Shown: piece by piece, positions 14,483 through 31,950 of the stretch
Layout: every line of letters starts with the position of its first letter
Numbering within the stretch: position 1 is the stretch's first letter
Source of the DNA: Crossiella sp. CA-258035
Lineage (GTDB): Bacteria; Actinomycetota; Actinomycetes; Mycobacteriales; Pseudonocardiaceae
Assembly: GCF_030064675.1 (NCBI RefSeq)
Contig: NZ_CP116413.1
Coordinates: 4,372,001 to 4,436,000 of the forward strand
Reading direction: 5' to 3'
Length of the DNA stretch: 64,000 nucleotides
Notes under the pieces: generated by a model
Database searches by the model: none
What the model saw: only the letters and a program-made list of their open reading frames with translations
What the model was told of the DNA's origin: nothing
Translations under genes and position numbers: made by a program

Positions 14483-17400
14483 ATGTCGAACGGGCGCACG
14501 GGTTTGCTGAAGAGTTCGCCATCGAGCAGATATGTCGGGAACTGGGTCCAAGTCGAAGGTAACGGTCTAGGCTTCGGCTTCTGCAAGGCGAAGCTTCCGA
14601 ACGGTGCGCAGGTCGTCTACGTCGATATACCTGGAGTGGCGGAAAAGCAGGTCGTCGTCCCGCTTGAGGAGATCACTTTTCCCAGGTTCTCGCTCGGCAC
14701 CCCGGTGTGGATCAAGGGTGCCCATTACGGTTGGGTTGCGGCCGAGATCGTCGCGCAAGCTGGCTTCGGCGAGTACTGGGTTCGGGTCAGCGGGTCGGGT
14801 ACTGACGTGCGACTACCGGGCGCTCGCCTGATGGTGCGTTGGAACAAGCCGCTGTGTGACCCGGTCGAGGCGTTGGCGAGCGGACTCTGCGACTCTCCCG
14901 AGTACTACACGACCCGCAGAGACTTCTTCGAGCACTTGGTCCGCCAGCGCGGTGCCTCCCGGGGCCTGACCGCTGCGATGTCCGCACCGATCAAGCTTTA
15001 CCAGCACCAGTTGGACACCGCGGCCCGTGTGCTCGGCGACCCGGTCATGCGCTATCTGCTCGCTGACGAGGTCGGGTTGGGCAAGACCATCGAGGCTGGA
15101 CTCGTTCTACGGCAGTTGCTGCTCGACGATCCCAAGATGGTTGCACTGGTGTCTGTGCCGGCCACGCTCGTCGAGCAATGGCAGGAGGAACTGACCGAGC
15201 GCTTGGCTCTTGGCACTGCCATCAAGCAGGGTCGAGTTCTGATCACCCGGCATGAGGAACTTCCCCGCCGAAAGGACCTGGGCCGCTACGGCCTAGTGAT
15301 CGTTGACGAAGCGCACAAGACGATCCGTCCACTGCGGGAGGCACCGAGGATATGGGAGTTGTTGCAGCACACCCGTGCATTGCTGTTGCTGTCGGCTACC
15401 CCGATGCGGGGCGACCTGACGACCTTCCTGGGGCTGTTGAACCTTATCGACCCAGTCGCCTTCCCCATCGACAACGTGACGGCATTGCGAGAGCGGATGG
15501 AGCACCGTGCGTCCTCGGCCAACAGTGTGCGCGTGCTGGGGCTGCGGCGCGCCACACCCCGACAGCGCCGCAACGCTCTCGCAGATCTGGAGTCGCTGCA
15601 CGGATCGGATCAGGTCTTCACCCGGATGGCGCAGCAGTGCCGCGCTGCCGATGAATCAGACATCGAAGTATGGCGGACCTTGGCTGAGTACGTCCGGGAG
15701 ACCTATCGGATCAGCAGGCGGATGATCCGCCATCGTCGGGGCGGCGAGTCCGCGCGCGGCTATCCGGTCGCCGGACGGCGGGCAACCTACCTCCAACTCG
15801 CCGACCCAGCTCGAGAGATCGTTGACCAATATTTGGAAAGCCTGCGGGAACGGTGTACCGGTTCGGACGATGGCGAGAAGTTCGCGAAGGTGGTGAACGT
15901 CGCCCTGGCCGGCCCGCAGGCGTTGGCACACTACCTTCGGAATGATCTGGCGGCGGACCCGGCGGCCGGCCGACCTGCCCACCTGCGTGCCCTCGCCGAG
16001 CGGGCCGCTGCGCGACTCGCCATGGCGGACATCGAAACAAGACAGCGAACGGCGCTCGACGTCGTCGACGATCGCGTGCGTGACGGGCACAAGGTCGTGG
16101 TCGTCGGTACTGCAACGGCCGTCGTCGCGGACTTTCTGGCGGCAGCGTCCGACCGGTGGGGAGACAAGGTTCGCGGTCATCTGGTCAACATGTCGCAGCC
16201 GGACCGGAACACCGCGGTGGAGGATTTTCTGGAGTCGCGGGTCGTGCAGGTGCTCGTCGGCGACTTCACCCTGGAGGAGGGCCGGAACCTGCAGCGGGCG
16301 CAAGTGCTGGTGAATCTGGATCTGCCCCTGGACGTCAACCGGCTGGAGCAGCGGATCGGTCGACTCGATCGGTTCACCGAACGCGGCGATCGGGCCGAGG
16401 TGGTGGTGTTCGAGGAGCCGGACAGCGACTGGCAGACGCGGCAGGTCGAGTTGCTTCGTGACGGAGTCGGGATCTTTGATGATTCGGTGGCCACACTGCA
16501 AATCAGGCTGAACCGCATGCGGGCAGACATGATCGACTCCTTGATCGAGCGCGGCAGCCAGGCGTTGGCTCCCGACCTGCAAGCGCTGAGGACGGACTTC
16601 GAGAACGAACGGGAACAGGTCGACTTGCTCGAGGAATTGGAGTCGGTCACCACCGCGACCGACTTCGACGACGCCGGGATGGCCGAGTTGACTGCGACCG
16701 ACGACGACGCTGCCGGACTTCGTGCGGCTTTCAAGCGACTGACCTCGTCACCACGGGGCGGGATCTGGCTCAAGCCCGTCGACGGGAAGCCGGAAGGGCT
16801 GGTGCAGTTCCAGGCCGACAACGGCAGGTCCGGACAGGCTCGAACCCGCCGAGTACCCGGACTCTCCGAGGTCGCCTCCCGAGAAGTCATTCCGCTCCTC
16901 GGCACTCCACGCGCCTATGCTCGGGATGTGGCGGTGTCCCAGCGGGCACCGTTGTTACGCGTCGGCGAACCATTGGTGGATTGGCTCGATCAACACTTGC
17001 GTATGGACGAACGCGGCCGTACCCGGGCGATCGTCCGCAAGACCAGTGCGGTCGAACTCCCTGAATTGTGGTTGGCCTGTGACTTCTTGGTGGAGTTCGA
17101 CGCGGCGTACCTCGACGCGGAGACCCCTGCGGTCCGGCGACGCCTGCGCAGGCGAGGTGACGCACTGCTTCCACCGGAGGTCATTCGAACCTGGACCAGC
17201 ATCGACGGTGTCGCCACTCCGCGCCTGGCCGCCGATGTGCTCGACACGCCGTTCACCGAAGGCGTCGACCACGTGCTGCGTGGGCCGAACTGGGCTCACG
17301 TGCTGCGTGCGTTGCCGGACTGGGCAGGCCAATGCCGGGCAAGTTTCCAGTTCGCCGAGCAACACCTGCGTGCGCAACCAGGGCTTACTGAACGCCCAGC

Positions 17401-17614
17401 CGAGGCCGAGCGGCGAGCCCAGGTGGAAGTCAACGCCCGACTCAAAGTCCTGCTGGCCCGATCGCACCGGTTGCCCACAGCAGCTGAGCGCAAGGGCGCC
17501 AAGCACGACATGGATCGGGAGGAGACATTGGGCGCGGCGCTCGTGAAAGGCATCGCCCGCCCGGCGGTGTCGGTAGTCGCATGTGGCGGGGTCGTGCTCT
17601 GGCCGGCGTCATGA
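14483..17614 (+). CDS. dpdE: DpdE-like SNF2-family (RapA-like) helicase
   Basis: A 1043-residue SF2/SNF2 ATPase. The N-terminal ~120 residues are beta-rich and resemble the Tudor-like modules of RapA. The SNF2 core has Walker A DEVGLGKT (195-202), VPATLVEQW, the DEAH box VDEAH (274-278) and SATPMRGD (304-311). The second RecA lobe carries VLVNLDLPLDVNRLEQRIG with an arginine finger in GRLDRFTERG (about 630). A long C-terminal region is specific to the family. In the Dpd system DpdE belongs to the set needed for restriction of DNA lacking 7-deazaguanine, presumably by translocating on DNA. It is the first gene of eight, and its TGA overlaps the next ATG. The assignment comes from domain type plus gene set and order. 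Confidence 0.82.
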   Translation: MSNGRTGLLKSSPSSRYVGNWVQVEGNGLGFGFCKAKLPNGAQVVYVDIPGVAEKQVVVPLEEITFPRFSLGTPVWIKGAHYGWVAAEIVAQAGFGEYWVRVSGSGTDVRLPGARLMVRWNKPLCDPVEALASGLCDSPEYYTTRRDFFEHLVRQRGASRGLTAAMSAPIKLYQHQLDTAARVLGDPVMRYLLADEVGLGKTIEAGLVLRQLLLDDPKMVALVSVPATLVEQWQEELTERLALGTAIKQGRVLITRHEELPRRKDLGRYGLVIVDEAHKTIRPLREAPRIWELLQHTRALLLLSATPMRGDLTTFLGLLNLIDPVAFPIDNVTALRERMEHRASSANSVRVLGLRRATPRQRRNALADLESLHGSDQVFTRMAQQCRAADESDIEVWRTLAEYVRETYRISRRMIRHRRGGESARGYPVAGRRATYLQLADPAREIVDQYLESLRERCTGSDDGEKFAKVVNVALAGPQALAHYLRNDLAADPAAGRPAHLRALAERAAARLAMADIETRQRTALDVVDDRVRDGHKVVVVGTATAVVADFLAAASDRWGDKVRGHLVNMSQPDRNTAVEDFLESRVVQVLVGDFTLEEGRNLQRAQVLVNLDLPLDVNRLEQRIGRLDRFTERGDRAEVVVFEEPDSDWQTRQVELLRDGVGIFDDSVATLQIRLNRMRADMIDSLIERGSQALAPDLQALRTDFENEREQVDLLEELESVTTATDFDDAGMAELTATDDDAAGLRAAFKRLTSSPRGGIWLKPVDGKPEGLVQFQADNGRSGQARTRRVPGLSEVASREVIPLLGTPRAYARDVAVSQRAPLLRVGEPLVDWLDQHLRMDERGRTRAIVRKTSAVELPELWLACDFLVEFDAAYLDAETPAVRRRLRRRGDALLPPEVIRTWTSIDGVATPRLAADVLDTPFTEGVDHVLRGPNWAHVLRALPDWAGQCRASFQFAEQHLRAQPGLTERPAEAERRAQVEVNARLKVLLARSHRLPTAAERKGAKHDMDREETLGAALVKGIARPAVSVVACGGVVLWPAS

Positions 17615-20163
17615 GGTCATCGCACACCAAGTCCTTGCGCCCCCTTGAGGAAGACCAACTCCGCGCGGTCCTGTTGGATCCCGCAACCGGCGTGGACTCC
17701 TTCACGGACGACCTGTATTCGCGGGTCGCCCATCTGTGTCGCGTGCCGGACGACGGGAGTGATCTGGACGTGGCTGTCCTTATCCGACACCTGTTGCGCC
17801 GGTGGAGCCGGGCGGGCAACCGGCCGGAGCAGGTGGTCACCTCACCCAGCCTGTCCTTTCGGCTGCGGGCGGCGAAGGCGACGGACTTGGTCGAGAGCAC
17901 CCCCGATCACTGGCGAGCGAGGCCGTGGCAGCCCCCCTGGCTTGCTGACACTGCCGACAAGCACAGTGGCGGACCAGACGGCGCTGTACTCGCCGGCACT
18001 CCCGGCGAGGCCCGCTTCAGTCAAGCCGGCCTCCCTGCTGATCCGTTCTTCTTCGACATCACCGGATTCACGTCGTACCGGACACCCGGCCAGCAGGCTG
18101 CGGTGCGCGCCGCGATGACCGCGGCTCCGGGTAGCACGATCACCGCGATGCTGCCGACCAGTTCCGGCAAGACCGAGGTCGCCCTGTGTCTCGCCGAGCG
18201 ATGGAAGTACAGCGTCTGCCTCATCGTCGTGCCGACCGTGGCGTTGGCGCAGGACTTCGAGCGGCGGTTCCGCGACCACTACGCGAGCCGGAACGAGCGG
18301 ATCAACCGAGACGACCTCGTATTCGCCTGGACCGCTGATACCCCTGAGGCCACCCGGCAGCGCATTCGCCTCGCGGTCACTGAAGGCAGGCAGCGCATCT
18401 TGGTGACTTCGCCGGAGTCGGTGACCCGGTCGCTGAGCCACACGTTGAAGCAGGCCGCAGGACGGGGCCGCCTCGGCGGGCTGGTCATCGACGAAGCACA
18501 TCTGGTCACCCAGTGGGGGCGCGACTTCCGGCCAGAGTTTCGTACCCTGGCCAGCCTCAGGCGGGAGTTGTTGGACGAAGCTAAGTCGGCGGCCGTCCGG
18601 CTCCCGGTGACCCTGCTGCTCAGTGCGACTCTCGGCGCAGCGGAACTCAACGATCTGCAGCTGCTGTTTGGATCCCCTGGCCCGACCGCGCTTATCGCGG
18701 CGAACGCCCTGCGCCAGGAACCCGACGTGTGGCTTGCGGAGTCCGGGAGCACCGAGGACAGGGACGCCAAGGTCTTGGAGACTCTCGCCCACGTGCCGCG
18801 TCCGGCCATTCTCTACGTCACCAGTCCGGAGGATGCGGACCGATGGGCGACGCGACTCCGCGAGATCGGATATCAACGCCTGTCGGTTGTCAGCAGCAAG
18901 ACGACCAATGACAACCGCGCCCAGGTGTTGGCCGCCCTTCGAAGCACGCCCGAGCAACCCGCGCGTACCGACCTGGTAGTGGCCACCTCCGCGTTCGGCC
19001 TGGGCATCGACTACGCCCATATCCGCACCGTGGTGCACGCCTGTCTGCCCGAGACCGTCGACCGTTGGTATCAGGAGTTGGGTCGCGGTGGTCGCGACGG
19101 CCACGCGTGCGCGGGTTTCCTGCTGACTGGCCCGGAGGATCTCCATCAAGCCGAGCAACTTGCCACGAAGGTCCTGTCAGCGAAGGTCGCGCAGAGGCGC
19201 TGGCGCGACCTATGGGCACACCGCAGGGAACTCCCGCACGGGCACTTCCTTGACCTAGAGGGCAGTAGCGGTGCGGCCGAGGAGGGTAGTTACAACCGCA
19301 AGTGGAACGTGCAACTGGTGCAGGGACTGGTGGAGTTGGGTGCTGTCGAACACCGCCGGGTCGACTTCGACGACATCCTCGAGTTGCGCGGGGAAGGTGA
19401 GGCACGACCGGACTGGGTGGCTGTCGAGCTGATCCGGTCCGACCTTGCCGAGGAGGAATTCTGGAAGGTTCACTGGAGCCCTTGGCAGCGAGAGCAGCGG
19501 AAGCGATCGATGGCGTCGCTGACCACCATGTGTCGAGTGGTCTCGGGGGAGGTCTCCGCGTGTGCTGGCATCGCGGACTCCTACCAACCGGATGAACGGG
19601 TCTGGGAACGGCACGGCGATGCGGCTCGGTGGGTCGCACCTGAGGCCAAGTGTGGTCGCTGCCCGCGGTGTCGGCAGGACAGGGTCGCGCCGCCCGGTGA
19701 TCCCGCCCCGCGCCCCTTGCAGAAGTGGGTACTGGGCGAGGAGGACCTCAACCTCGACGACCTAAAAGCGGTGGCCGAAACCTACCCGGGACTGATCGTT
19801 CTTGCCGCCGCTGATCCCGTGGCGATCGCCCCTCGCCTGGCGAAATCGCTCGTCCGACGGGGGATCAGGCACCTGGCTGGACCTGTCGGCGAGTTCGGTG
19901 CCGAGGACAGGTTGTTCGTCGACCCCGCTCCGACATCTCCCTGGGCGCTCACCCCCCGCGGCGTGTTCGTCGTCTACCCACCCGGAGTGCGGATCACTGC
20001 TTCCTGGTTCAACCGCGCCACTCGGCTGCGAGCCCGAGATCCGGCGCGGCCACCCGTGGACATCCTCCTCGTCCCGTCGGATGCCAGGATTGACGGCAAG
20101 GACGTGGTGAGGCACCTGCGTGCACTCGATGCAAACATCGCCTTGCAGATTCTCGGAGACTGA
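17611..20163 (+). CDS. dpdF: DpdF-like RecQ-type ATP-dependent DNA helicase
   Basis: An 850-residue RecQ-like SF2 helicase. A Q-motif-like YRTPGQQAAV (156-165) precedes Walker A LPTSSGKT (181-188), LIVVPTVAL, the DEAH box IDEAHLVTQWGRDFRPEF (293-310; the W-G-x-D-F-R-P signature is typical of RecQ) and LLLSATLG. Lobe 2 has VVATSAFGLGIDYAHIRTVVH and motif VI ELGRGGRDGHACAG. A later Cys cluster (KCGRCPRCRQ, about 695) may bind zinc. I start at ATG 17611, which overlaps the DpdE stop as ATGA; the 17581 start is ten codons longer and lies inside dpdE. Role: inferred DNA unwinding during restriction in the Dpd pathway. Confidence 0.82.
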   Translation: MRSSHTKSLRPLEEDQLRAVLLDPATGVDSFTDDLYSRVAHLCRVPDDGSDLDVAVLIRHLLRRWSRAGNRPEQVVTSPSLSFRLRAAKATDLVESTPDHWRARPWQPPWLADTADKHSGGPDGAVLAGTPGEARFSQAGLPADPFFFDITGFTSYRTPGQQAAVRAAMTAAPGSTITAMLPTSSGKTEVALCLAERWKYSVCLIVVPTVALAQDFERRFRDHYASRNERINRDDLVFAWTADTPEATRQRIRLAVTEGRQRILVTSPESVTRSLSHTLKQAAGRGRLGGLVIDEAHLVTQWGRDFRPEFRTLASLRRELLDEAKSAAVRLPVTLLLSATLGAAELNDLQLLFGSPGPTALIAANALRQEPDVWLAESGSTEDRDAKVLETLAHVPRPAILYVTSPEDADRWATRLREIGYQRLSVVSSKTTNDNRAQVLAALRSTPEQPARTDLVVATSAFGLGIDYAHIRTVVHACLPETVDRWYQELGRGGRDGHACAGFLLTGPEDLHQAEQLATKVLSAKVAQRRWRDLWAHRRELPHGHFLDLEGSSGAAEEGSYNRKWNVQLVQGLVELGAVEHRRVDFDDILELRGEGEARPDWVAVELIRSDLAEEEFWKVHWSPWQREQRKRSMASLTTMCRVVSGEVSACAGIADSYQPDERVWERHGDAARWVAPEAKCGRCPRCRQDRVAPPGDPAPRPLQKWVLGEEDLNLDDLKAVAETYPGLIVLAAADPVAIAPRLAKSLVRRGIRHLAGPVGEFGAEDRLFVDPAPTSPWALTPRGVFVVYPPGVRITASWFNRATRLRARDPARPPVDILLVPSDARIDGKDVVRHLRALDANIALQILGD

Positions 20164-20167
20164 CCTC

Positions 20168-21040
20168 GTGGACTTCCTGAAGACCCATGTCCGCGCAAGC
20201 GCGCAGGCACTACTGATCATCTGTCGTCGACTCGGCACCCGACCAGAAGGGCGGACCACCGTCGAGTTGCAACGTGACCTACAGCCGGAACTGCTGGTGC
20301 GGCAGAGCAGTCCCAAAGAAAGCGCATTGCTGCCCTCGTTGAAGGTGGGGGAGCACCTGGGGATGGTGACTGCGAGCGGGGGCTCGCCTGAAGTGTGGTC
20401 GCTTGGTCCGAACGTCGACACCGGGCTATTGGTCGACTCGCCGGAACGAACCAACGCCTTTTATGCGGCCGTATTGCGAGCCATCGGGTCCACTGCGATC
20501 GCGGACCTGGAGTCCGGGACGAAGCCCTCGGACGTGGCGATGGGGCTCGCGTGGTGGTGTGCCCTCGATCCGTACGAGCGGCTCCCCACCGCTTGGGCCG
20601 AGGCCGAAGCGGTAGTGAAGGCCGCGCAGATGGAGTCCGCGATCGGCAACAGCTCCCAGTGGCCGCAGTTCACCCGGTGGGCTAGGACGCTCGGCCTCGT
20701 GACAACGACGGAGTTTAGCCGGAAGCCACAGTTGGCCCCCGATTGCACTCGCGCGTTGCGCCATGCGTTGCCTGCTCTGCCTCGCCATGCGGAGGCGAAC
20801 CAGTGGCTCCACCAGGCACAAGAGCTAGTACCGGTACTGAGCCCACGGTTGGCTGCCAGACTTCCGCAGCCCCCTGACACGGCTTATGTCGGTGGTTCTC
20901 TCGCGCTCGCGCTGAACAAACTTGCACACATCAAGAAGATCGAGTTGTTGGCTACTGCGGACGCCACATCCAGTGTGGTCGTGCGGTTGGGTGAGCGGGA
21001 CCGCGTCGTCAGTCACATCCGGGTCCTGGAGGCAACATGA
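20168..21040 (+). CDS. dpdG: DpdG-like protein
   Basis: A 290-residue soluble protein without a recognisable enzyme motif. Its position between the RecQ-like helicase and the large P-loop ATPase, and its size, match DpdG of the Dpd cluster. The GTG at 20168 is chosen because GGAG (20155-20158) lies nine bases before it; it sits four bases after the dpdF stop. The N-terminal third (LLIICRRLGTRPEGRTTVELQ) and middle (WPQFTRWARTLGLVTTTE) have the look of winged-helix segments, so a DNA-binding or adaptor role is possible (inference). The stop overlaps the dpdH ATG. Confidence 0.65.
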   Translation: MDFLKTHVRASAQALLIICRRLGTRPEGRTTVELQRDLQPELLVRQSSPKESALLPSLKVGEHLGMVTASGGSPEVWSLGPNVDTGLLVDSPERTNAFYAAVLRAIGSTAIADLESGTKPSDVAMGLAWWCALDPYERLPTAWAEAEAVVKAAQMESAIGNSSQWPQFTRWARTLGLVTTTEFSRKPQLAPDCTRALRHALPALPRHAEANQWLHQAQELVPVLSPRLAARLPQPPDTAYVGGSLALALNKLAHIKKIELLATADATSSVVVRLGERDRVVSHIRVLEAT

Positions 21041-24000: not shown

Positions 24001-24147
24001 GTGGCGCGGACCGAGGAAGAGTGCCGGCGGAACACGCCTGAATCCAGCGACGTGGAAGAACTGGAACAGCGCGTGCGAACGGAGCTGGACAACCTGAGCC
24101 AGTCGTTGCAGGCACTGAGTAATGAGGCGGGTGCTGTCGATGTCTAG
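21037..24147 (+). CDS. dpdH: DpdH-like large P-loop ATPase
   Basis: A 1036-residue ATPase. Walker A GESGAGKS is at residues 82-89, and a Walker B-like LVLLFEDLAQFG at about 325 follows a long helical insert. A cysteine-bearing segment (CDSGPDGAPCPMRSRCHAGF, about 430) may bind zinc. The C-terminal half is helical with no catalytic motif I recognise. Its size and place between DpdG and DpdI fit DpdH, a restriction-side component of the Dpd system; the architecture resembles AAA+/STAND ATPases that hold DNA or partner subunits. The ATG overlaps the dpdG stop (ATGA), and the gene ends eight bases inside dpdI. The ATPase call is firm; the DpdH name rests on context. Confidence 0.75.
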   Translation: MTTLKGFRCWTAESVRSTVYSDIGALPSDADALFLAAHTPMVLSHLSGVEIAEGDGSERDVLRALRAGLGDANRNTLIAVTGESGAGKSHVVRWVHAHWPADLANCHVLYVPRAVQTIRDLLRSIVDGLPTAGGSELLARVENAVAGTSPEQLRDRLLEETRFALTWTLETEQGHPNETNDERNVRIERNMLLGEPDANGKRRHGLADLLQVTKVNETLLQPGGTLDVIVNSLLDKVSRRDTVEFQRSDLPLGKPGVRSAVAKFDELAELWDIVSHEPQQALEVLNQAVQRGLSAAIGLRAPDGENLDDLFREARQTLRRQGRELVLLFEDLAQFGLIGGELYDQLATQPDEDMAPLRAVFAVTDGPFKKIVRTVGTRITHQFAVSEDALPQREAFIARYLNLVRLGNDRVDALWRRADRDDDTWLPNACDSGPDGAPCPMRSRCHAGFGAVEIDGLGQVGLYPYNEAALKRALERPTTPDKPRTPRSDINECVSDTLIEAYAHLGRGTFPHERAFTRFDHQHKLPKSALLNGRTGEEGDRYFRAAVLWGAEQHPNSVVLEAFGLADKSGSDPVEQARPVVVAKPVSRTQAGAVPTNSPPQKPSLPSPLQSLFQWETGSQLSERDVKMYRPILYTLVLMRLDLERDLVHRRSSGLIDDLFGNYFKQTSFYFGPDAYGQRAGEGSITFTLERCSEDVNVLAAAKWYVDHGHWDRYSGNWDWPRGLEPHDLMLSLETRLDDWAEQVRAGFLAKVRVKELARAAVGVRAIALMCCGEDPRNLTTLRDALAEAVTLDIADGWEDAAVAARALLDHHVLTDIVAGFASARQGTGEPQLLDFVTLETDLHDAVTTPTAFLESVAEDMQAIAPQLAKDAKGLLTAIQQSGAEFMESVIEAQATLADTLEGAKPRAVVAPAEELARQAVKSGFFRPADGKNAFLSALEVLRSTPDRLPLTWRPSAGVDFLDSAVRVQSWAGATIRAAVAMRVVRDAVARTEEECRRNTPESSDVEELEQRVRTELDNLSQSLQALSNEAGAVDV

Positions 24148-24850
24148 CCAGTTGCCTGAGTGGCTCACCCGTGCGGCGCAGATGGTGAACCGAGCGAGCA
24201 ACGAGAAAGCCATGCAGGACCGGATGAACGATCTGCAGCAGGTGGATGTCGATCTGACCAGGTTGACCCGCAGGGTGACCAAGTTGGTTGCTGCCGCCGA
24301 GGTCGGCCGGAGCGAGTGGTGGCCAGGCACGAACCTGCCAGATGACGTCTTCGACCTAGTGGCGGCCGTGCGCAAGTCGTTTGAGCAGCGTCCGTGGCGG
24401 AAGGCGGAGAAGGAACTGGACAAGTTGGTCGGGAGGCTCGAGGCCGAGGTGAAGTCGGCGTGGGGAGCGTTTGTCGGTCGATTGGCGGGAAGCAGCGCGA
24501 ACTTGAGCGGCCTCGTCCACGTGACGAGGGCGGCTCTCGGGCTCGCCGAGATCGCGGCGGAGGTGGAGAGCGCGCTGACCGCCCTGTCCAGGGTGCAAAC
24601 GGCGCTGCCAGACGAGAAAGCGATGGAGATCGTGGCCACCGCGGCCGCGGCCCTCGAACGGCTGGCGACCAGGCTGCCCGACGAGGTCCACGTGTTCCTG
24701 GACGCCGCGACCCGGAGCGAGGGGGTCGAACTGTCCGCGCTGACCCCAGCGGTAGTGTCCTGGCTCACGGCGAACGGGGTCGCCGGGGAGTTCCGCATTG
24801 TCGCGGGCCGGCAGTCCGCAAGTAGGGGGCGAGGACAGAACCGTGGTTGA
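24140..24850 (+). CDS. dpdI: DpdI-like helical protein
   Basis: A 236-residue protein dominated by amphipathic helices with strong coiled-coil character (MQDRMNDLQQVDVDLTRLTR, then KAEKELDKLVGRLEAEVKS and EIAAEVESALTALSRVQ). It has no enzymatic motif, signal peptide or Cys cluster. Length and location between the ATPase and the giant helicase match DpdI. ATG 24140 is favoured: GAGGCGGG lies upstream, and the overlap with the dpdH stop is eight bases. ATG 24122 would add six residues. It probably acts as a structural or bridging subunit for DpdH and DpdJ (inference from coiled coil and context). Confidence 0.62.
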   Translation: MSSQLPEWLTRAAQMVNRASNEKAMQDRMNDLQQVDVDLTRLTRRVTKLVAAAEVGRSEWWPGTNLPDDVFDLVAAVRKSFEQRPWRKAEKELDKLVGRLEAEVKSAWGAFVGRLAGSSANLSGLVHVTRAALGLAEIAAEVESALTALSRVQTALPDEKAMEIVATAAAALERLATRLPDEVHVFLDAATRSEGVELSALTPAVVSWLTANGVAGEFRIVAGRQSASRGRGQNRG

Positions 24851-27800
24851 CGAACAGCTCCGACGTGATCTGGACGCGTTGTCGCGGCTGGAACTACGCG
24901 AGGCCGAGTTGCTCGCCTGGGGGGCAGTCGGGGCAGAGTGGACAGCCAAGGAGATCCAACAGCTACTCGACGAGACTGAGGCCGACCCAGACGTGCTGGC
25001 ACGTCTGGAGGAGAAGGCTTTGGTGGTGCGCACGCCGAACCAGGGCTACCGCACTCGCAGTGCTGAGACGGTGCGGTTGATGGCGACGTTACGCCAAGCG
25101 TTCCGTCACGAACGGGTCACCGAAGGCAAGCCCCTCGTGCTCGATCACCGCTTCCTGCACCGGCCACGCCGGCGCCCGAAGCGGGACCTGCCTGCGGACA
25201 AGGCGCTCGCTGGCGCCCGCCAGTACCTCGATGAAGCGGGCGAGGCGGTCGCGCGGGCCATCGCGCCACCTCACATCTCCGGGTTCCAGCAGCGCAGCGC
25301 CGAGAACGTGTTGAAGGCCTTGTGCGGGAACGGCCCGGCCGGGGTGATCGTGACGGCCGGAACGGGTAGTGGGAAGACGCTGGCTTTCTACCTCCCGCTG
25401 CTGGCGTGGCTCGCCGATCGGGCAACCAAACAGCGCGCACCCGGCACGCTCGCCCTGGCTCTGTACCCACGCAATGAACTGCTCAAGGACCAACTGCGCG
25501 CTCTGCTGCGGCACCTGGAGACCGCGGCGCACGCGGGCGCGGGGCCGACGCTCAGCGTGGCGACATGGTTCGGCCCGACGCCCGCGGACGCGCGCAGTGT
25601 CAAGTTCGTGTGGCAGCGCAAGGGAAAGGACTACATCTGCCCGTACCTGCGTTGCCTCCAATGCAACAGCGATCTCGTCTGGCGCAACTCGGACATCTCG
25701 GCCAGGCCTGCCCGCGAAGGCCTGGAGTGCACAAACGATGATTGCGGCGCCCGCGTTGACGGGAGTGTGCTTAGGCTGACCCGCGACAGCGCGCAGCGGA
25801 ATCCCGCGCACGTCATGTTGACCACCACGGAGTCGCTCAACCGGCAACTGTCGGCACCGGGCAACCTCGTGGCATTCGGTGTGGTGCCGCCTCCGGGGAC
25901 GGCGGGCGTTGCACCGCTCGCTGCGGTGTTGCTGGACGAGGTGCACACCTACGAGGGGCCGAGCGGCGCGCAGAACGCCATCCTGTTCCGGAGGCTCAAG
26001 CACCGTTTGCGCCGCGACCCCGTCTGGGTCGGGCTCTCCGCGACTCTGCGTGCCCCCGAGTCGTTCCTGGCCCGATTGGTCAACCTGGCGCCGTCTACCG
26101 TGCAGGCGGTGCACCCGCAGCCGAGCGAGATGGAAGTCACCGGCGCCGAGTACCTGGTCGCCCTGCGGCACAACCCGCATTCCCGGACAGGGCCGCTGTC
26201 CCTGAGCATCCAGTCGGCCATGGTGCTGGCCCGATGCCTGGACAATCCGGTTCGCGACCCCATGAATCCGGCCCTGTCGTCCGAGGGTGTCTTCGGCAGC
26301 AAGGTGTTCGTGTTCACCGACAAGTTGGACAGCACGAACCGGCTGTACTGGGACCTGTGCGACGCGGAAGGGCATGGCATCCCGTCGAGGCAGCCCACTT
26401 CCCTGGCACACCTGAGGTCAGCTGAACAGAGCAGGATGAAGGCAGACCTCCGAGAACCGGAGGATGCGCGCGACGAGACAGGTCAGCGTTGGTGGCTCCC
26501 CGACATCCTCGGCCATGAGCTCGAGGCCGACCGGTCACTGATGATCGGCCGGACCAGTTCGCAGGACCGAGGGGTGGCCACCTTGGCGCAGGTCGTGGTG
26601 GCCACGGCGACCTTGGAGGTCGGTTTCGACGACGACCAGGTCGGCGCGGTGATCCAGCACAAGGCTCCGCACGACGCCGCGCAGTTCCTGCAGCGCAAGG
26701 GGCGCGCCGGCCGAAGCGTGCAGACCCGGCCGTGGACCGTCGTTGTGTTGAGCGACTGGGGCCGTGACCGGCAGGCGTGGGACGCATATGACGCCATGTT
26801 CGACCCCGAGTTGCCGCCGCGCACGATCCCGGTGGAGAACCTCTACGTCCTGCGCATCCAGGCGGTGTACGCGCTGCTGGACTGGCTCGCGATGGAGTTG
26901 CGGTACAAGGAGCGGGAGTCGACCTGGACCGACCTATCAGGTTCCGCGGCCCAACTGTTCCCGAACAACGCCTCCGCACAGGCGGCAACCGAGAAGCGCC
27001 AGTTGCGACTGCAGGCCGAACTGCGCCAGCTACTGGAGAGCGGCACTAAGCGGAGCATGCTGCGCAGGCACCTGCAGCACGCCCTCGGACTCGGCCACGA
27101 CGACCTGGCTGAGTCCATCGTGGACACTTTGTTGTGGGAATCGCCTCGCCCTCTACTGGTCGCGGTCATCCCGACGATGCTGCGCAGGCTCGAGGACAAC
27201 TGGCAAGGCGAACCGGTCGGCATGGACAACGGTCTGCAAACCCGGACCCCGCTGCGCGATTTCGTTCCAGGCAACCTGTTCGACGACCTGTTGGTGCCGG
27301 ATGTGGAGTTCACCGTGCCGGGACAGCGCGGGAAGAACGAGACCGAGCACTTGCCGGCGCTCCGCGCGTTGCGCGAGTTCTGCCCGGGGAACGTGAGCAG
27401 GCATTTCGGGGTCCACGCCGACAACAAGCGGCACTGGATCCCGCTGCCGACTCTGGCCCCCGGCGAACCACGGCGTCGGGTGGATGTGACCACGGCATAC
27501 CAGGCTAGGTTCGTCGACCGCGTCGACACGGGTGACACCCCGGTCGATGTCTACTCGCCCGTGAGCGCGACACTCGAAGCAGTCGACCGCGACGTGAAGG
27601 ACGCGTCGTCGATGACCCCGGACTGGGAGTTCCACGTCAGCAGACTCGGCTCGGGCAATGGGATCCGACTCGGTCGAGGTGCGGAGCGGCTGCTCGCGGA
27701 GATGACTGCCCACCTGCACGTTCAGGGTGGCGGCGTGCGCGCGATCCGGTTCGCGCGCACCGCGCACGGTACCCTGTGGAATCCCACTGCCGAGCCGGTT

Positions 27801-29249
27801 CAGCTCGAGTTCGGTATCGGCGGTGCCGAGTGGGTACCCGCCGCGATCGGTGTCGACCTGCACTGTGACGCGCTGGAGGCAGTGGTCAAGGTCCCCGTCG
27901 AACCCGGCGAGCCCACACCCACGGAGCGGACGACTAGGCTCCGGTACGCCGTACTCGTCGAGGCGGACCTGCCGAAGACTATGACGGTCTTCCACCGCGA
28001 GTCGCTGGTGAAGATCCTTGTGGCTGCGGTCCTCCACTCCCACGCTGGCGGGCCTGGTCTGCGTGAGAGCGAAGACTGGTCAATCGCGTTGATCTCGGCC
28101 GCTGCAACCCTGGGTATCGTCGGGAAGGCGCAAGACGACGCAACGGGTGCGGCGACCTGGCGGGAGTGGCTCACCGACCACGATGTCGTCGCGGCAGTGC
28201 GCGAGGCAGCTGCTGAGGTGCTCGCCGTCGACCGATCGCCTGAGTGGGTTGCCTGGTGGCGTCGCACTTACACGGTGACCGCAGCCCACTTGGTTCTGGA
28301 CGCGCTGGCGGCCTGCTGCCCGGGCATCGATCCCGACGAAGTAGCAATTGACCTAGATCCTGAGCACGACGACCGGTTCTGGCTTTCGGAGCGCTCGCCG
28401 GGTGGCACTGGTCAGATCGAGGCATTCCAACGTGCACTGGCGCAGGACCCGAACGCGTTCAGCCGTGCACTTGAGGACACGATGCTGCCCAGTTCCGTGG
28501 AAATCGTCGACGAGCAACTGTCCGCGTTGTTGCGCGCACCGTCACCGGAGGTGTCCGCCAGCCTCGACGCACTGCGCCGAGCTTGGCGCAACGGGCACGA
28601 GGCGGTGAGCGATGCCGTGCTGGAGGTTGAGCGGGTCGCCCGAGAGAACGACATCGTGCTCGATGGCCCCGCACGCTCCACGTTGAGCACCCGGGTCGCA
28701 GGTCCCGGCGCGCACCCGGACCTGGTCTCCCGGCTCAAGTCTTGGTTGGAGTTGCGCGACCAGATCACCGATTCGGCCCAACTTGCGGTCGACCCGCAGA
28801 CCTTCGGGGTGCTCGTTGCCGCAGACAAGAGCATCGACGCATTACTGCACCTCGGCGCGGAAACTGAGGAGGCCAGGCGGGCCAGGGCGGTGAGCAACGT
28901 GCTGTGGCCGTGGGGCACGGCACCCGGCTCGCCGTCGTCGCTGTACGGGACTGTGCCGGAGATCGCGCCGCACTTGATCCGCGAGCATGTCCGGCTCGCT
29001 CCAGACGTCGTCGAACTGTCCACTTGGGATGAGCAGACTCGCGTTTCGGTACACGCGTTGCTGGTAGACCTGGGCGAGGTGGTGTTGGCGGTGCGGCAGT
29101 CGGAGCGAGACCTGCTCCGATCGGTGCTGCTTGACTTGCAGACTCGGCCGATCGAGGTGGGCGCCCTGCTGGTGCACCCGGTGACCGTCGGGCTGCGCGA
29201 GAATACCCACTCTGTCGAGGTCCGCGTACTGCTGCGGGAGGCGCTGTGA
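24843..29249 (+). CDS. dpdJ: DpdJ-like giant DEAD/DEAH (DEVH) helicase with zinc-binding insert
   Basis: A 1468-residue SF2 helicase, the largest protein in the window. Walker A AGTGSGKT is at 172-179. An insertion between motifs Ia and II has a Cys array (C-x5-C-x2-C, then C-x4-C, about 265-300) that should bind zinc. The DEVH box VLLDEVHTYEGP is at about 362, GLSATLRAP at about 398, VVATATLEVGFDDDQVG at about 590 and motif VI FLQRKGRAGRSVQ at about 620. The C-terminal ~800 residues are family-specific. I start at GTG 24843, with GAGGA seven bases upstream and an eight-base overlap with dpdI; 24798 is in frame but lacks these. The DEVH box plus Cys array also resembles DISARM DrmA/DrmB-type proteins. 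Inferred role: DNA translocation in restriction. Confidence 0.8.
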   Translation: MVDEQLRRDLDALSRLELREAELLAWGAVGAEWTAKEIQQLLDETEADPDVLARLEEKALVVRTPNQGYRTRSAETVRLMATLRQAFRHERVTEGKPLVLDHRFLHRPRRRPKRDLPADKALAGARQYLDEAGEAVARAIAPPHISGFQQRSAENVLKALCGNGPAGVIVTAGTGSGKTLAFYLPLLAWLADRATKQRAPGTLALALYPRNELLKDQLRALLRHLETAAHAGAGPTLSVATWFGPTPADARSVKFVWQRKGKDYICPYLRCLQCNSDLVWRNSDISARPAREGLECTNDDCGARVDGSVLRLTRDSAQRNPAHVMLTTTESLNRQLSAPGNLVAFGVVPPPGTAGVAPLAAVLLDEVHTYEGPSGAQNAILFRRLKHRLRRDPVWVGLSATLRAPESFLARLVNLAPSTVQAVHPQPSEMEVTGAEYLVALRHNPHSRTGPLSLSIQSAMVLARCLDNPVRDPMNPALSSEGVFGSKVFVFTDKLDSTNRLYWDLCDAEGHGIPSRQPTSLAHLRSAEQSRMKADLREPEDARDETGQRWWLPDILGHELEADRSLMIGRTSSQDRGVATLAQVVVATATLEVGFDDDQVGAVIQHKAPHDAAQFLQRKGRAGRSVQTRPWTVVVLSDWGRDRQAWDAYDAMFDPELPPRTIPVENLYVLRIQAVYALLDWLAMELRYKERESTWTDLSGSAAQLFPNNASAQAATEKRQLRLQAELRQLLESGTKRSMLRRHLQHALGLGHDDLAESIVDTLLWESPRPLLVAVIPTMLRRLEDNWQGEPVGMDNGLQTRTPLRDFVPGNLFDDLLVPDVEFTVPGQRGKNETEHLPALRALREFCPGNVSRHFGVHADNKRHWIPLPTLAPGEPRRRVDVTTAYQARFVDRVDTGDTPVDVYSPVSATLEAVDRDVKDASSMTPDWEFHVSRLGSGNGIRLGRGAERLLAEMTAHLHVQGGGVRAIRFARTAHGTLWNPTAEPVQLEFGIGGAEWVPAAIGVDLHCDALEAVVKVPVEPGEPTPTERTTRLRYAVLVEADLPKTMTVFHRESLVKILVAAVLHSHAGGPGLRESEDWSIALISAAATLGIVGKAQDDATGAATWREWLTDHDVVAAVREAAAEVLAVDRSPEWVAWWRRTYTVTAAHLVLDALAACCPGIDPDEVAIDLDPEHDDRFWLSERSPGGTGQIEAFQRALAQDPNAFSRALEDTMLPSSVEIVDEQLSALLRAPSPEVSASLDALRRAWRNGHEAVSDAVLEVERVARENDIVLDGPARSTLSTRVAGPGAHPDLVSRLKSWLELRDQITDSAQLAVDPQTFGVLVAADKSIDALLHLGAETEEARRARAVSNVLWPWGTAPGSPSSLYGTVPEIAPHLIREHVRLAPDVVELSTWDEQTRVSVHALLVDLGEVVLAVRQSERDLLRSVLLDLQTRPIEVGALLVHPVTVGLRENTHSVEVRVLLREAL

Positions 29250-29776
29250 ACCGGGTCGTCCGGAAGTCGCGGGTGCAGAGTTCAGTTGAGGTCTTCGACC
29301 TGCTGATCGCCCTGTTCACCGCCGAGTTGGTGCGGCCGAGCAAGTGCCTGTGGCTGGTATCGCCGTGGATCAGCAATGTGGACCTGATTGACAACTCGGC
29401 AGGCACCTACCCGGTGCTGTCGCGGTTTGGGCGCCGCCCGATCCGGCTCGCCGAGATCGTGATTACGCTCGCCGCACGAGGCACCCACGTGGTCGTCGGC
29501 ACCACGACCGACAAGCACAACGAGGCGTTCGAGTACCAGGTACGGACGCTGGCTGAAGACCTCGATGTCGCGCACAGAGTGACGATTGACAACGCCCCGC
29601 CCCGGACCAGGCACGCGAAGGCGGTGACCGGAGACGACTATGCGCTGGCCGGGAGCATGAACATCACCTTCAACGGCATCCACATCCTGGAAGAGGATGT
29701 GGAGCTGAAGACCGACCCGGCCTACGTCGCGCAAGCCAGGATGGACGCGTACAGCCGGTTCGGAGGGTTGCTGTGA
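29246..29776 (+). CDS. dpdK: DpdK-like phospholipase D-family nuclease
   Basis: A 176-residue PLD-superfamily protein with one HKD motif: His123-x-Lys125-x4-Asp130, then Ser137 and Asn139 in GSMNITFNG. Earlier PLD-fold strands include CLWLVSPWISNVD (34-46) and HVVVGTTTDKHNEA (81-94). Single-motif PLD proteins work as dimers, and in defence systems they act as nucleases; this is the only clear nuclease candidate in the operon. The GTG start overlaps the dpdJ stop (GTGA), and the stop overlaps the next GTG (GTGA). It fits DpdK by size and position, and is analogous to DrmC of DISARM. Confidence 0.82.
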   Translation: MNRVVRKSRVQSSVEVFDLLIALFTAELVRPSKCLWLVSPWISNVDLIDNSAGTYPVLSRFGRRPIRLAEIVITLAARGTHVVVGTTTDKHNEAFEYQVRTLAEDLDVAHRVTIDNAPPRTRHAKAVTGDDYALAGSMNITFNGIHILEEDVELKTDPAYVAQARMDAYSRFGGLL

Positions 29777-31950
29777 TCAACGCGGACGAGTTGCGCCAGT
29801 GCGCGGGCGATCTCAGCGTGTACAGGGCCTTCCAGGACAGCTTCGAGGTGTTGATCGAAGAGCAGCTCCGAAAACTCACCGGGACGCCCGGTGAGTGGGT
29901 CGTCATCCCGCTGCATGAGCGCGAGCCCAAGGGTTTCTACCTGGTGTCGGCCGACCTCGAGGGACAGCGCCGCGGCCGGGAGGTGCTCGATGCGTTTCTC
30001 GGACCGACGACGGCGGCGTTGGCGAGCACCCGGCTGGGCAAGCTGCAATTGATCGACGGACAACTTATGGCCGCTGGGGCAAGACACCTGACGTACGTTC
30101 GCCGGGTCGCCGAACAACAGAAGTTGGTGGATCGGGTCCGGACCGCAGTGTCGACCGTAACGTCGAATGACGCACGGCCGCGCCCTACCCTGGTTCCCCA
30201 CCTGCACCGGCTTCGAGATTTCCGCCTCGCCTTGCTGCAGCACAACGCAGCGGAGGCGAGCGCTGCGCTGGCGGATCTCCGGCTCAGCGGGCAGTTGAGC
30301 GCGGAGAACTTGCGGTTCCTCACGGTCGAATTGCACGGGCGCCTCGGCCGCTGGTCGGAGCTGCGGCAGTTGCCCTACTTCCGCGACCTGCTCAAGGCCC
30401 GCAGGCCGCGTGCGATCAACGAGCTCCTGCTGGAGATGATCTGGCAGGTCGACATCGCTGCGCTAGGCGCTGACCGGTCGCTGACAGAGATCGCCGCCGA
30501 GGCTGACCTGATCTCGCAGTTCGGCACGGTGATCGGCGCAGTGGATGTGCCCGGTAGCGCGCTCGGCCGCAAGGTCGCGGTGATCGCCGCTGCCACGGCG
30601 GGCGACGAGCGGCGACTCGCCCGGATCCTTGAGGCGACAACTCTTGACGAACGCCAGGATCTCGATCGGTTGCTGGCACGGCACGAGGTCACGCCGCCCA
30701 GTGTGAGTCTGGACGCGAACCTGCACGAACTGCTTGCTGGTGGCCAGTTCAGCAACGTCATCCACGCGTATCTCGAGAACCCAGAACCGGGTACCTCTAT
30801 CGCGGCGGTGCACGCTGTCTTGGATAGCAACGACACTGAGCATGCGGCGGCGGTTCTTACGGAGATTGAGCGTTTCCGGGCAGCAGGTCGATTGCCCGCG
30901 TTGACGCGTCGCACCAAGCAGGATCTCGATAGCTTGCGAGGGCTCATCGAGTCCACTTGTTCGGATTGGGGTGCGTGGCTGCGTCGAGTGGCGGTCGGTC
31001 CCTGGCCGGATGCCGAGCGCATCCTGCGGGCCAGCCACCATGACTGGCCTGAGCTAACGACGCTTACTGCTGCCGAGGCCGAACGGGCTGCGGAAGATCT
31101 GCTCGAGGCAGCCACGGTCACCAATCAGGAACGAGTCGTCGCTGCGCTTGACCTACTTTGTCTGGCGGCGGCACGCGCGGCGGCCAGTCCGCATCTGGCG
31201 CAGTTCTGTGAACTGGTGCTCGATGTGCTCGCGAGTCAGCAGAACGTGAGCGGACCGGTCCGTCATGCCTACCTGGACTTGCTCGGCAACATCCTGGAGA
31301 GCGGTCCGTCCCCCGAGCGCTACGCGAATGCAGTGCTAGGCGCGGGCAAGTTGTGGGCGAAGATCGCTGCCCCCAGCGTGGTTGACTGGGCTATAGATCT
31401 GGTTGACCTGCTGATGGATACCTCGGTGCCGGAACGCGGAGCGTTGATCAGCGTCGTCAGCGCCGTGCTTGGACAGATCCGGGACTTCCCCGCGGAACGG
31501 CTGAGCCTGCGGCAGCGAACCGAGATCGACCACTTGGCTGAGCACGCGGGCCTACCCACGACGTCGGCTCCCGTACCGACCAGCGGAGCCGACACCGTTT
31601 GGTCAAATCTCGCCGAACGCGAGATCGGCATCTACACCCTTCAAACTGGGGCTGTCGGTCACTTCCGCGAGCGACTGCAGCGGATGCAGGTTCCCAAGAC
31701 AGTGACAGTGACCGGCAACAGCGACAAGGTAGCGACCCCAACGTTGCGAGCACTGGTCGCCCGCGCGGACTACATGATCGTGGATACCTGGCACGCCGCC
31801 CATGCCGCAACCGATGCGATCGACGAGGTGTTGCCGCGCGATCAGCAACTGCTCCCACAGGGCCGTGGTGTGTCTGGATATATCCGGGTATTGGAGGATG
31901 CGCTGTCGCGGCAGGTCATGAGCTCTCGGGGGTATCCAGAGACTTCTTGA
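29773..31950 (+). CDS. dpdD: DpdD-like protein, last gene of the operon
   Basis: A 725-residue protein with no classical catalytic motif I can name. An N-terminal domain contains EWVVIPLHEREPKGFYLVS and VLDAFLGPTTAALAS (70-85). A long helical region (LRLSGQLSAENLRFLTVELH, repeated alpha-hairpins) and a C-terminal segment with RADYMIVDTWHAAHAATDAI follow. The size and the AFLGPT-type N-terminal motif suggest DpdD. In Salmonella-type Dpd clusters dpdD precedes dpdE, so here it would have moved to the end; an unrelated accessory gene is the alternative. The GTG overlaps the dpdK stop. No terminator hairpin is visible after the TGA at 31950. Confidence 0.6.
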   Translation: MINADELRQCAGDLSVYRAFQDSFEVLIEEQLRKLTGTPGEWVVIPLHEREPKGFYLVSADLEGQRRGREVLDAFLGPTTAALASTRLGKLQLIDGQLMAAGARHLTYVRRVAEQQKLVDRVRTAVSTVTSNDARPRPTLVPHLHRLRDFRLALLQHNAAEASAALADLRLSGQLSAENLRFLTVELHGRLGRWSELRQLPYFRDLLKARRPRAINELLLEMIWQVDIAALGADRSLTEIAAEADLISQFGTVIGAVDVPGSALGRKVAVIAAATAGDERRLARILEATTLDERQDLDRLLARHEVTPPSVSLDANLHELLAGGQFSNVIHAYLENPEPGTSIAAVHAVLDSNDTEHAAAVLTEIERFRAAGRLPALTRRTKQDLDSLRGLIESTCSDWGAWLRRVAVGPWPDAERILRASHHDWPELTTLTAAEAERAAEDLLEAATVTNQERVVAALDLLCLAAARAAASPHLAQFCELVLDVLASQQNVSGPVRHAYLDLLGNILESGPSPERYANAVLGAGKLWAKIAAPSVVDWAIDLVDLLMDTSVPERGALISVVSAVLGQIRDFPAERLSLRQRTEIDHLAEHAGLPTTSAPVPTSGADTVWSNLAEREIGIYTLQTGAVGHFRERLQRMQVPKTVTVTGNSDKVATPTLRALVARADYMIVDTWHAAHAATDAIDEVLPRDQQLLPQGRGVSGYIRVLEDALSRQVMSSRGYPETS

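What the first reader, a model, noticed from the sequence alone, without database searches (positions are those of the whole stretch)
14483..31950. Complete Dpd restriction-side operon without DpdA/B/C
Eight consecutive genes give the domain series expected for DpdE-K plus DpdD: SNF2, RecQ-like, DpdG-type, P-loop ATPase, coiled-coil DpdI-type, giant DEVH helicase, PLD nuclease, DpdD-type. In described Dpd systems these proteins restrict DNA lacking 7-deazaguanine and act beside DpdA (a TGT-like transglycosylase), DpdB, DpdC and preQ0 synthesis genes. None of those is in the window. Either the modification genes are elsewhere in the genome, or this lineage uses a modification-independent version. 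In the second case the operon would be a new kind of helicase/nuclease defence system, with self/non-self recognition unexplained.
Basis: partly seen in the sequence, partly recalled or inferred. Interest (0 to 1): 0.9.

Follow-up and report, generated by a model that had tools for sequence, protein, structure and literature searches.

The report
Split Dpd DNA-defence system in Crossiella
The DNA-cutting half of a known bacterial defence system sits alone here because its DNA-marking half lies 3.2 million bases away on the same chromosome, and in related bacteria the two halves appear to be inherited separately and recombined.

Summary
In detail: window 14483-31950 is a complete dpdE-F-G-H-I-J-K-D operon with no DpdA/B/C or preQ0 gene in the window. 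The headline reading (modification-independent Dpd) is wrong for this genome. The same single-contig 9.17-Mb chromosome carries dpdC-B-A-B plus queC/E/D, folE2 and a YhhQ-like transporter at C1:1152349-1159942, 3.23 Mb away. A Pfam TGT search misses this DpdA; the DpdA-specific model gives 604.7 bits. It is a whole Dpd system in two pieces, in a Crossiella species. Among 390 genomes of its family the same 16 carry DpdD and DpdA over the curated cut-offs. In 7 of the 16 the halves are unlinked, two of them in single-contig genomes. Trees show two coherent blocks (DpdA with DpdB2; DpdD, F and J together) that disagree strongly with each other. One relative keeps a DpdD scrap of another subtype beside its modification genes while its complete operon lies elsewhere. 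The restriction operon thus behaves as an exchangeable cassette plugged into a resident modification module: a new arrangement of a known system, with a parallel in Dnd phosphorothioation. Activity was not tested.

The parts
14483..17614 (+). dpdE, SNF2-family helicase, 1043 aa
   Evidence: PADLOC PDLC02841 1187.7 bits, NCBIfam NF041062 774.8 (cut-off 500); DEAH motif
17581..20163 (+). dpdF, RecQ-like helicase, 860 aa
   Evidence: PDLC02872 699.4 bits, NF041063 605.3 (cut-off 550); DEAH motif
20120..21040 (+). dpdG, 306 aa
   Evidence: NF041064 83.0 bits (cut-off 80); PADLOC only 14.1 bits
21037..24147 (+). dpdH, AAA/P-loop ATPase, 1036 aa
   Evidence: PDLC02876 1153.3 bits; NF041065 379.1, below its cut-off of 450; Walker A GESGAGKS
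24122..24850 (+). dpdI, 242 aa
   Evidence: weak: PDLC02892 22.4 bits, NF041066 38.6 against cut-off 150; place in the operon
24798..29249 (+). dpdJ, large DEVH helicase, 1483 aa
   Evidence: PDLC02896 1307 bits, NF041067 1190.4 (cut-off 800); AGTGSGKT and DEVH
29246..29776 (+). dpdK, PLD-like nuclease, 176 aa
   Evidence: PDLC02901 157.6 bits, NF041068 171.5 (cut-off 100); one HKD motif HAKAVTGD
29773..31950 (+). dpdD, helical-repeat protein with C-terminal alpha/beta domain, 725 aa
   Evidence: PDLC02825 586.7 bits, NF041061 386.0 (cut-off 300); AlphaFold2 model mean pLDDT 86.2, only generic helical-repeat (TPR/PPR-like) matches in the PDB with low TM-scores

Best explanation
The window holds the restriction half of a complete but physically split Dpd system. 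The modification half (dpdC, dpdB1, dpdA, dpdB2, with queC, queE, queD, folE2 and a YhhQ-like transporter) lies at C1:1152349-1159942, 3.23 Mb away, 0.9 kb from a tRNA-Arg(CCG) gene. Most likely working: FolE2/QueD/QueE/QueC make preQ0, DpdA with DpdB exchanges it for guanine in chromosomal DNA, DpdC converts it to dADG, and the DpdE-K/D proteins (three SF2 helicases, an AAA ATPase, a PLD nuclease, a helical-repeat protein and two small ones) attack DNA without the mark. Shown here: all gene families present, key motifs found in E, F, H, J and K, purifying selection between two genomes, strict co-occurrence, separate inheritance of the two halves as blocks. Inferred: the chemistry (from the named families), the restriction activity, and that the restriction cassette reads the mark itself rather than its cognate DpdA/B/C proteins, which is what exchange of cassettes implies.
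For: DpdA NF041059 604.7 bits at C1:1157551-1158765. In the same locus DpdB twice (409.5 and 524.4, cut-off 300), DpdC (PADLOC 381.2), QueC 196.9, QueE 353.2 and QueD 106.3 over cut-off, FolE2 211.8 against 215, Vut_1/YhhQ-like 26.8 against 27.2. Family survey of 390 genomes: DpdD over cut-off in 16, DpdA over cut-off in 16, the same 16. Unlinked in 7 of 16: G000 and G465 (single contigs), G553, G338, G204, G455, G458 (at least 17 kb). The two Crossiella genomes are syntenic at both loci; dN/dS 0.14-0.46 for D-K and 0.03-0.13 for C, B1, A, B2. Normalised Robinson-Foulds distance: D-J 0.12, D-F 0.18, J-F 0.06, A-B2 0.12, but A against D, J or F 0.88. Pair G295/G189: 97% identical DNA through dpdA and, by gene length, to about the end of dpdB2, then cassettes of different clades. 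A DpdD scrap resembling one clade at the modification locus of A. pegani, whose complete cassette belongs to another clade and lies elsewhere.
Against: No biochemical or base-composition data. DpdI and DpdH fall below curated cut-offs. The DpdA alignment is short (424 columns), trees used the quick method, some rows have long branches (G372 in D and J; several in B2), and the groups for the AU tests were chosen after seeing the trees. For the window genome no clean pre-insertion site of the operon was found: its flanks are not syntenic in three congeners, and no cassette remnant lies at its modification locus. G458 is split by only 17 kb at least, and G014 could be linked across contig ends. 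G000 and G553 are one species cluster, so the 7 are not 7 independent events. Four of 13 DpdA genomes without cassette genes near DpdA have no DpdJ over cut-off anywhere, so the dependence runs one way only.
Confidence: 0.88

Rival explanations
1. Modification-independent Dpd: the D-K operon works alone as a helicase/nuclease defence with another way to tell self from non-self.
For: No modification gene in the window. A D-K operon stands without a detected DpdA on a Nostoc plasmid, p057_I. Phosphorothioate DndFGH has been proposed to act alone (PMC10853773, passages seen).
Against: Full modification operon on the same chromosome. DpdD over cut-off was accompanied by DpdA over cut-off in 22 of 22 genomes. 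The Nostoc chromosome could not be searched.
Confidence: 0.05
2. The two loci are independent: the 1.15-Mb locus marks DNA for another purpose (for example protection from other restriction), and the D-K operon is a decaying or unrelated passenger.
For: They are 3.23 Mb apart and have different phylogenies. DpdA without any DpdJ over cut-off occurs: 4 of 13 genomes whose DpdA locus lacks cassette genes in the fetched flanks (G403, an isolate; G405, G407, G409, metagenome bins that may be incomplete).
Against: The same 16 of 390 genomes carry both; key motifs found and dN/dS well under 1 in all eight genes; 67 of 80 DpdA loci have cassette genes within the fetched flanks.
Confidence: 0.05
3. 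Simple rearrangement: one ancestral linked island was broken by a chromosomal inversion or translocation in the Crossiella lineage, with no exchange of cassettes there.
For: For Crossiella and A. inagensis (G338) both halves are close relatives (DpdA 75%, cassette proteins 53-78%), so for this pair a broken ancestral island is possible.
Against: Across the family the two halves disagree (RF 0.88), one cassette clade sits unlinked in genomes whose DpdAs do not group (G204, G455, G458), and G592 carries two cassettes with one DpdA.
Confidence: 0.25

Closest known systems
Dpd 7-deazaguanine DNA modification-restriction system (Salmonella Montevideo, Kineococcus radiotolerans)
   Same: All gene families D-K and A-C plus preQ0 genes are present. 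[quoted passage not shown]
   Different: Here the two operons are 3.23 Mb apart, gene order is E-K then D, dpdB flanks dpdA on both sides, and in relatives the halves are inherited separately. That survey required dpdA and dpdB and used a 20-kb window extension, so I infer that a free-standing D-K operon would not be called and a split one would be scored as lacking restriction genes.
Dnd/Ssp phosphorothioate systems (DndABCDE with DndFGH; SspABCD with SspE or SspFGH)
   Same: Modification and restriction modules are separable and different restriction modules pair with one kind of modification (PMC10853773 abstract and passages; PMC8092258, start of abstract in the search listing).
   Different: Different chemistry and proteins. 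DndFGH is argued to be often decoupled from modification; here D-K was accompanied by DpdA in all 22 genomes with an over-cut-off DpdD.
BREX-Related Capture (BRC) systems with a TGT homologue
   Same: Mixes Dpd-derived parts with other defence modules (PMC12839542, passages seen).
   Different: Keeps the TGT and lacks DpdB/C; the passages seen name no DpdD-K operon.

Membership tests
Dpd system | restriction genes dpdD, E, F, G, H, I, J, K | tested here: met
   All eight matched; H and I under NCBIfam cut-offs, G weak in PADLOC
Dpd system | DpdA transglycosylase | tested here: met
   NF041059 604.7 bits (cut-off 200), C1:1157551-1158765; C367, C369, C372 and H394 invariant in 11 sequences, the TGT zinc site as I recall it
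Dpd system | DpdB and DpdC | tested here: met
   DpdB twice over cut-off; DpdC PADLOC 381.2 bits, no NCBIfam match at 1e-5
Dpd system | preQ0 supply (FolE/QueD/QueE/QueC or import) | tested here: met
   QueC, QueE, QueD over cut-off, FolE2 just under, YhhQ-like Vut_1 just under
Dpd system | modification and restriction operons in one island | tested here: not met
   3,226.5 kb apart in a single-contig genome. I take this as a typical but not a defining feature: the family's proteins, not their spacing, define it.
Dpd system | dPreQ0/dADG in DNA | not testable with these tools
   needs LC-MS
Dpd system | restriction of unmodified DNA | not testable with these tools
   needs transformation or phage assay
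Modification-independent (orphan) Dpd restriction operon | no DpdA anywhere in the genome | tested here: not met
   DpdA present; Pfam TGT alone misses it
DISARM / BREX / Druantia | proteins match these families better than Dpd | tested here: not met
   Best DISARM and BREX scores in DpdE are 126 and 118 bits against 1187.7 for Dpd; best Druantia score in DpdJ is 69 against 1307

The most novel reading that the evidence does not exclude
The dpdE-K-D operon is an autonomous, horizontally mobile restriction cassette that moves without its modification genes and settles in hosts that already carry a Dpd mark, replacing or adding to earlier cassettes. It therefore reads the 7-deazaguanine mark itself rather than partner proteins, and free-standing copies (such as the Nostoc plasmid one) act as selfish or defensive elements restricted to marked hosts.
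Probability: 0.5. Interest if true: 0.65.

Novelty: new variant of a known kind. Interest (0 to 1): 0.5.

Why it matters
How the Dpd restriction genes tell marked from unmarked DNA is open; [quoted passage not shown] Split, swappable modules give a direct test: cassettes of three deep clades can be paired with one modification module in trans. It also warns annotators twice: neighbourhood-based callers would score split systems as incomplete (inference), and a Pfam TGT search reports no DpdA where there is one. A restriction cassette that seems to spread without its antidote, yet came with it in all 22 genomes with an over-cut-off DpdD, is a clean natural case for the rules of restriction-modification linkage.

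Tried and rejected
Pfam PF01702 (TGT) over the own genome gave 0 matches and at first suggested a true orphan; the DpdA-specific model overturned this, and the own DpdA scores 20.7 bits against Pfam's cut-off of 26.3. Empty-site search for the restriction operon: right and left flanks lie in different places in three Crossiella congeners without Dpd, so no clean insertion site was found. No tRNA lies in the window. Promoter and terminator scan gave nothing beyond shuffles. Remnants of a cassette at the own modification locus: none at E 0.01. DpdD fold search: only generic helical-repeat matches with low TM-scores, so no catalytic function can be assigned; no PDB sequence match. DpdD in phages: none at 1e-5. 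Whether the Nostoc host of the free-standing plasmid cassette has DpdA on its chromosome could not be tested. One structure library was absent. The DpdJ model also rings below its cut-off on ordinary helicases (11 of 14 control genomes), so only over-cut-off DpdJ was counted.

Dropped rows and rough edges: G146 is missing from the DpdD tree and from the 20-taxon distances (no DpdD locus was used), G017 and G338 from the DpdB2 tree (not fetched; truncated at an assembly gap). G014 is counted as unresolved, not split. The count of 67 of 80 rests on tblastn with this genome's proteins and bit thresholds that I set. In some searches open frames were taken stop to stop, so N-termini are rough. The smallest possible distances in draft genomes were worked out by hand from contig positions and lengths.
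Full report
OBSERVATION. The eight ORFs at 14483-31950 lie on one strand, each overlapping the next. PADLOC and NCBIfam both name them DpdE, F, G, H, I, J, K, D in that order. DpdH and DpdI fall under NCBIfam's curated cut-offs and DpdG is weak in PADLOC, but no other family scores better. The genes have lower third-position G+C (0.74-0.86) than most flanking genes and overall G+C of 65.6% against 72-73% in the flanks, as expected of acquired DNA. The window has no hit to this genome's own DpdA, B, C, Que, FolE2 or YhhQ-like proteins.

WHERE THE MODIFICATION GENES ARE. The window is C1:4372001-4436000 of a single-contig genome of 9,170,171 bases. A Pfam TGT search found nothing in it. The NCBIfam DpdA model found DpdA at C1:1157551-1158765 with 604.7 bits against a cut-off of 200. 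Pfam's model scores the same protein 20.7 against 26.3, which explains the false negative. Around it lie, on the minus strand, a Vut_1/YhhQ-like transporter, FolE2, QueD, QueE and QueC, and on the plus strand DpdC (1155495-1156433), DpdB (1156430-1157554), DpdA, and a second DpdB (1158818-1159942). The gap to the restriction operon is 3,226.5 kb. The locus has 62% G+C against 71-72% around it.

WHOSE GENOME. The nearest DpdA in named genomes is 97% identical, from Crossiella sp. SN42; a genome with the same gene coordinates is labelled same species (G553). Both loci are syntenic between the two genomes. By a simple Nei-Gojobori count, dN/dS is 0.14-0.46 for the eight restriction genes and 0.03-0.13 for C, B1, A, B2, so both halves are maintained.

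THE MODIFICATION LOCUS IS A tRNA HOTSPOT. Conserved flanks end at 1151998 and resume at 1160852, at a tRNA-Arg(CCG). In two of three congeners without Dpd the same two flanks enclose other DNA (3.7 kb in G552, about 12.5 kb in G551); in the third (G550) the right flank was not in the stretch fetched. In Actinokineospora pegani the modification locus lies 8 kb from a tRNA-Arg(CCG) too. The restriction locus has no tRNA in the window and no syntenic counterpart in the three congeners.

CO-OCCURRENCE. In 397 genomes drawn from the order 11 have DpdD over cut-off and all 11 have DpdA over cut-off. In 390 genomes of the family DpdD passes its cut-off in 16 and DpdA passes its own in 16, and they are the same 16; under random placement the chance of identical sets would be about 1e-28, though relatedness makes that number far too small. 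In 394 genomes drawn from the class 3 have DpdD over cut-off, and all 3 have DpdA. Without double counting that is 22 of 22. Four more genomes have only short or weak DpdD pieces (G583, G718, G443, G985), and none of these has DpdA.

LINKAGE. Of the 16 family genomes, 8 have a linked cassette (G150, G393, G454, G490, G494, G546, G592, G658), 7 are split and 1 (G014) is unresolved because both loci end at contig ends. Split: G000 by 3.23 Mb and G465 by about 4.2 Mb, both single-contig; at least 143 kb in G553, 54 kb in G338, 41 kb in G204, 32 kb in G455 and 17 kb in G458, worked out by hand from contig positions. G592 also carries a second, complete, unlinked cassette on another contig. Of 80 named DpdA loci (the best 80 of 138 that were confirmed), 67 have cassette genes within the fetched flanks. 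Of the other 13, 8 have DpdJ over cut-off elsewhere in the genome, 4 have none over cut-off (three of them metagenome bins), and 1 (L115, G408) has a divergent partial DpdJ, with F- and H-like hits, on the contig of its DpdA just beyond the fetched flank, so it is probably linked. In three of the 8 (L044, L093, L103) contig ends leave linkage open.

TWO BLOCKS, SHUFFLED. Trees of DpdD, DpdJ and DpdF agree (normalised Robinson-Foulds 0.06-0.18), and DpdA agrees with DpdB2 (0.12, 19 taxa). DpdA against DpdD, J or F gives 0.88 (20 taxa), and DpdA or DpdB2 against DpdJ 0.94 (19 taxa). Cassettes fall into deep clades: the window's with G553, G338, G014, G393, G490, G494 and the second G592 one; another with G204, G455, G458 and G295; and the rest. 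G393, G454 and G458 have closely related DpdA (end branches 0.03-0.06) but cassettes in three clades, and DpdJ rejects their grouping (p-AU 1.7e-6); DpdA rejects the cassette groupings (7e-33, 4e-75). These groups were picked after seeing the trees, and some rows have long branches.

SNAPSHOTS OF EXCHANGE. G295 and G189 share 97% identical DNA over 2,044 bases that cover the fetched part of dpdA and, judged by gene length, all of dpdB2; similarity then stops, and cassettes of different clades follow in different arrangements. In A. pegani a 3' scrap of dpdD lies beside dpdB2 and resembles DpdD of G465, G454 and G150, not its own complete DpdD on another contig, which belongs to a different clade. 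Right after that complete dpdD lies a gene with an rve integrase core, and a serine recombinase lies about 10 kb on. A Nostoc plasmid, p057_I, carries dpdE-F-G-H-(I)-J...K-D with no DpdA on the plasmid at the threshold used; DpdJ was found on 5 plasmid records, and the other 4 also carry DpdA.

MECHANISM. Inferred from family knowledge: preQ0 is made by FolE2, QueD, QueE and QueC; DpdA with DpdB puts it into DNA; DpdC turns it into dADG; D-K restricts DNA without the mark. [quoted passage not shown] The predicted DpdD structure is an alpha-helical repeat array with a C-terminal alpha/beta domain; of 11 invariant alignment columns 7 lie in that domain (among them Y621, H677, T680 and G699). DpdD is thus more likely a scaffold or sensor than a nuclease, but this is weak. 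Exchange of cassettes over one modification block argues that recognition is of the mark and not of partner proteins. That step is inference.

KNOWN OR NEW. The Dpd system is known. In the papers held, I found no statement that its two operons occur unlinked or are exchanged (searches; passages). The paper that described the island, a 2024 review and a 2023 structural paper were not held, so they were not read and may say more. The GATOR-GC survey reports islands lacking the restriction operon but required dpdAB and used a 20-kb window extension, so split systems would probably be scored as lacking it. For phosphorothioation, separable modules are already described (PMC10853773).

Noticed in passing
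L207-L208 and L205-L206 (G592): One genome carries a single DpdA with two complete restriction cassettes of different subtype, one linked and one on another contig.
   Followed up: partly
L027:8743-9022 (A. pegani modification locus): A 3' scrap of dpdD of another subtype lies next to dpdB2, a trace of a replaced cassette.
   Followed up: yes
L216:5380-26695 (Nostoc sp. C057 plasmid p057_I): A complete dpdE-K-D cassette without a detected DpdA on the plasmid, with extra small genes including an HNH protein between dpdJ and dpdK.
   Followed up: partly
L203:11365-14796 (G465): A 1143-aa protein with a weak NACHT/AAA match lies directly downstream of the unlinked dpdD.
   Followed up: no
L146:9472-10011 (Saccharothrix obliqua): A Vut_1/YhhQ-like transporter gene follows an unlinked restriction cassette, whereas in the window's genome the transporter gene sits with the modification genes.
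   Followed up: no
L029:13596-17745 (Actinokineospora inagensis): The modification locus lacks queD, queE and dpdB1 hits, and dpdB2 is cut at a 10-N assembly gap; it may be reduced or misassembled.
   Followed up: no
L023:16430-19942: dpdB is present on both sides of dpdA; by my count 73 of the 80 DpdA loci show two separate DpdB-like hits.
   Followed up: no
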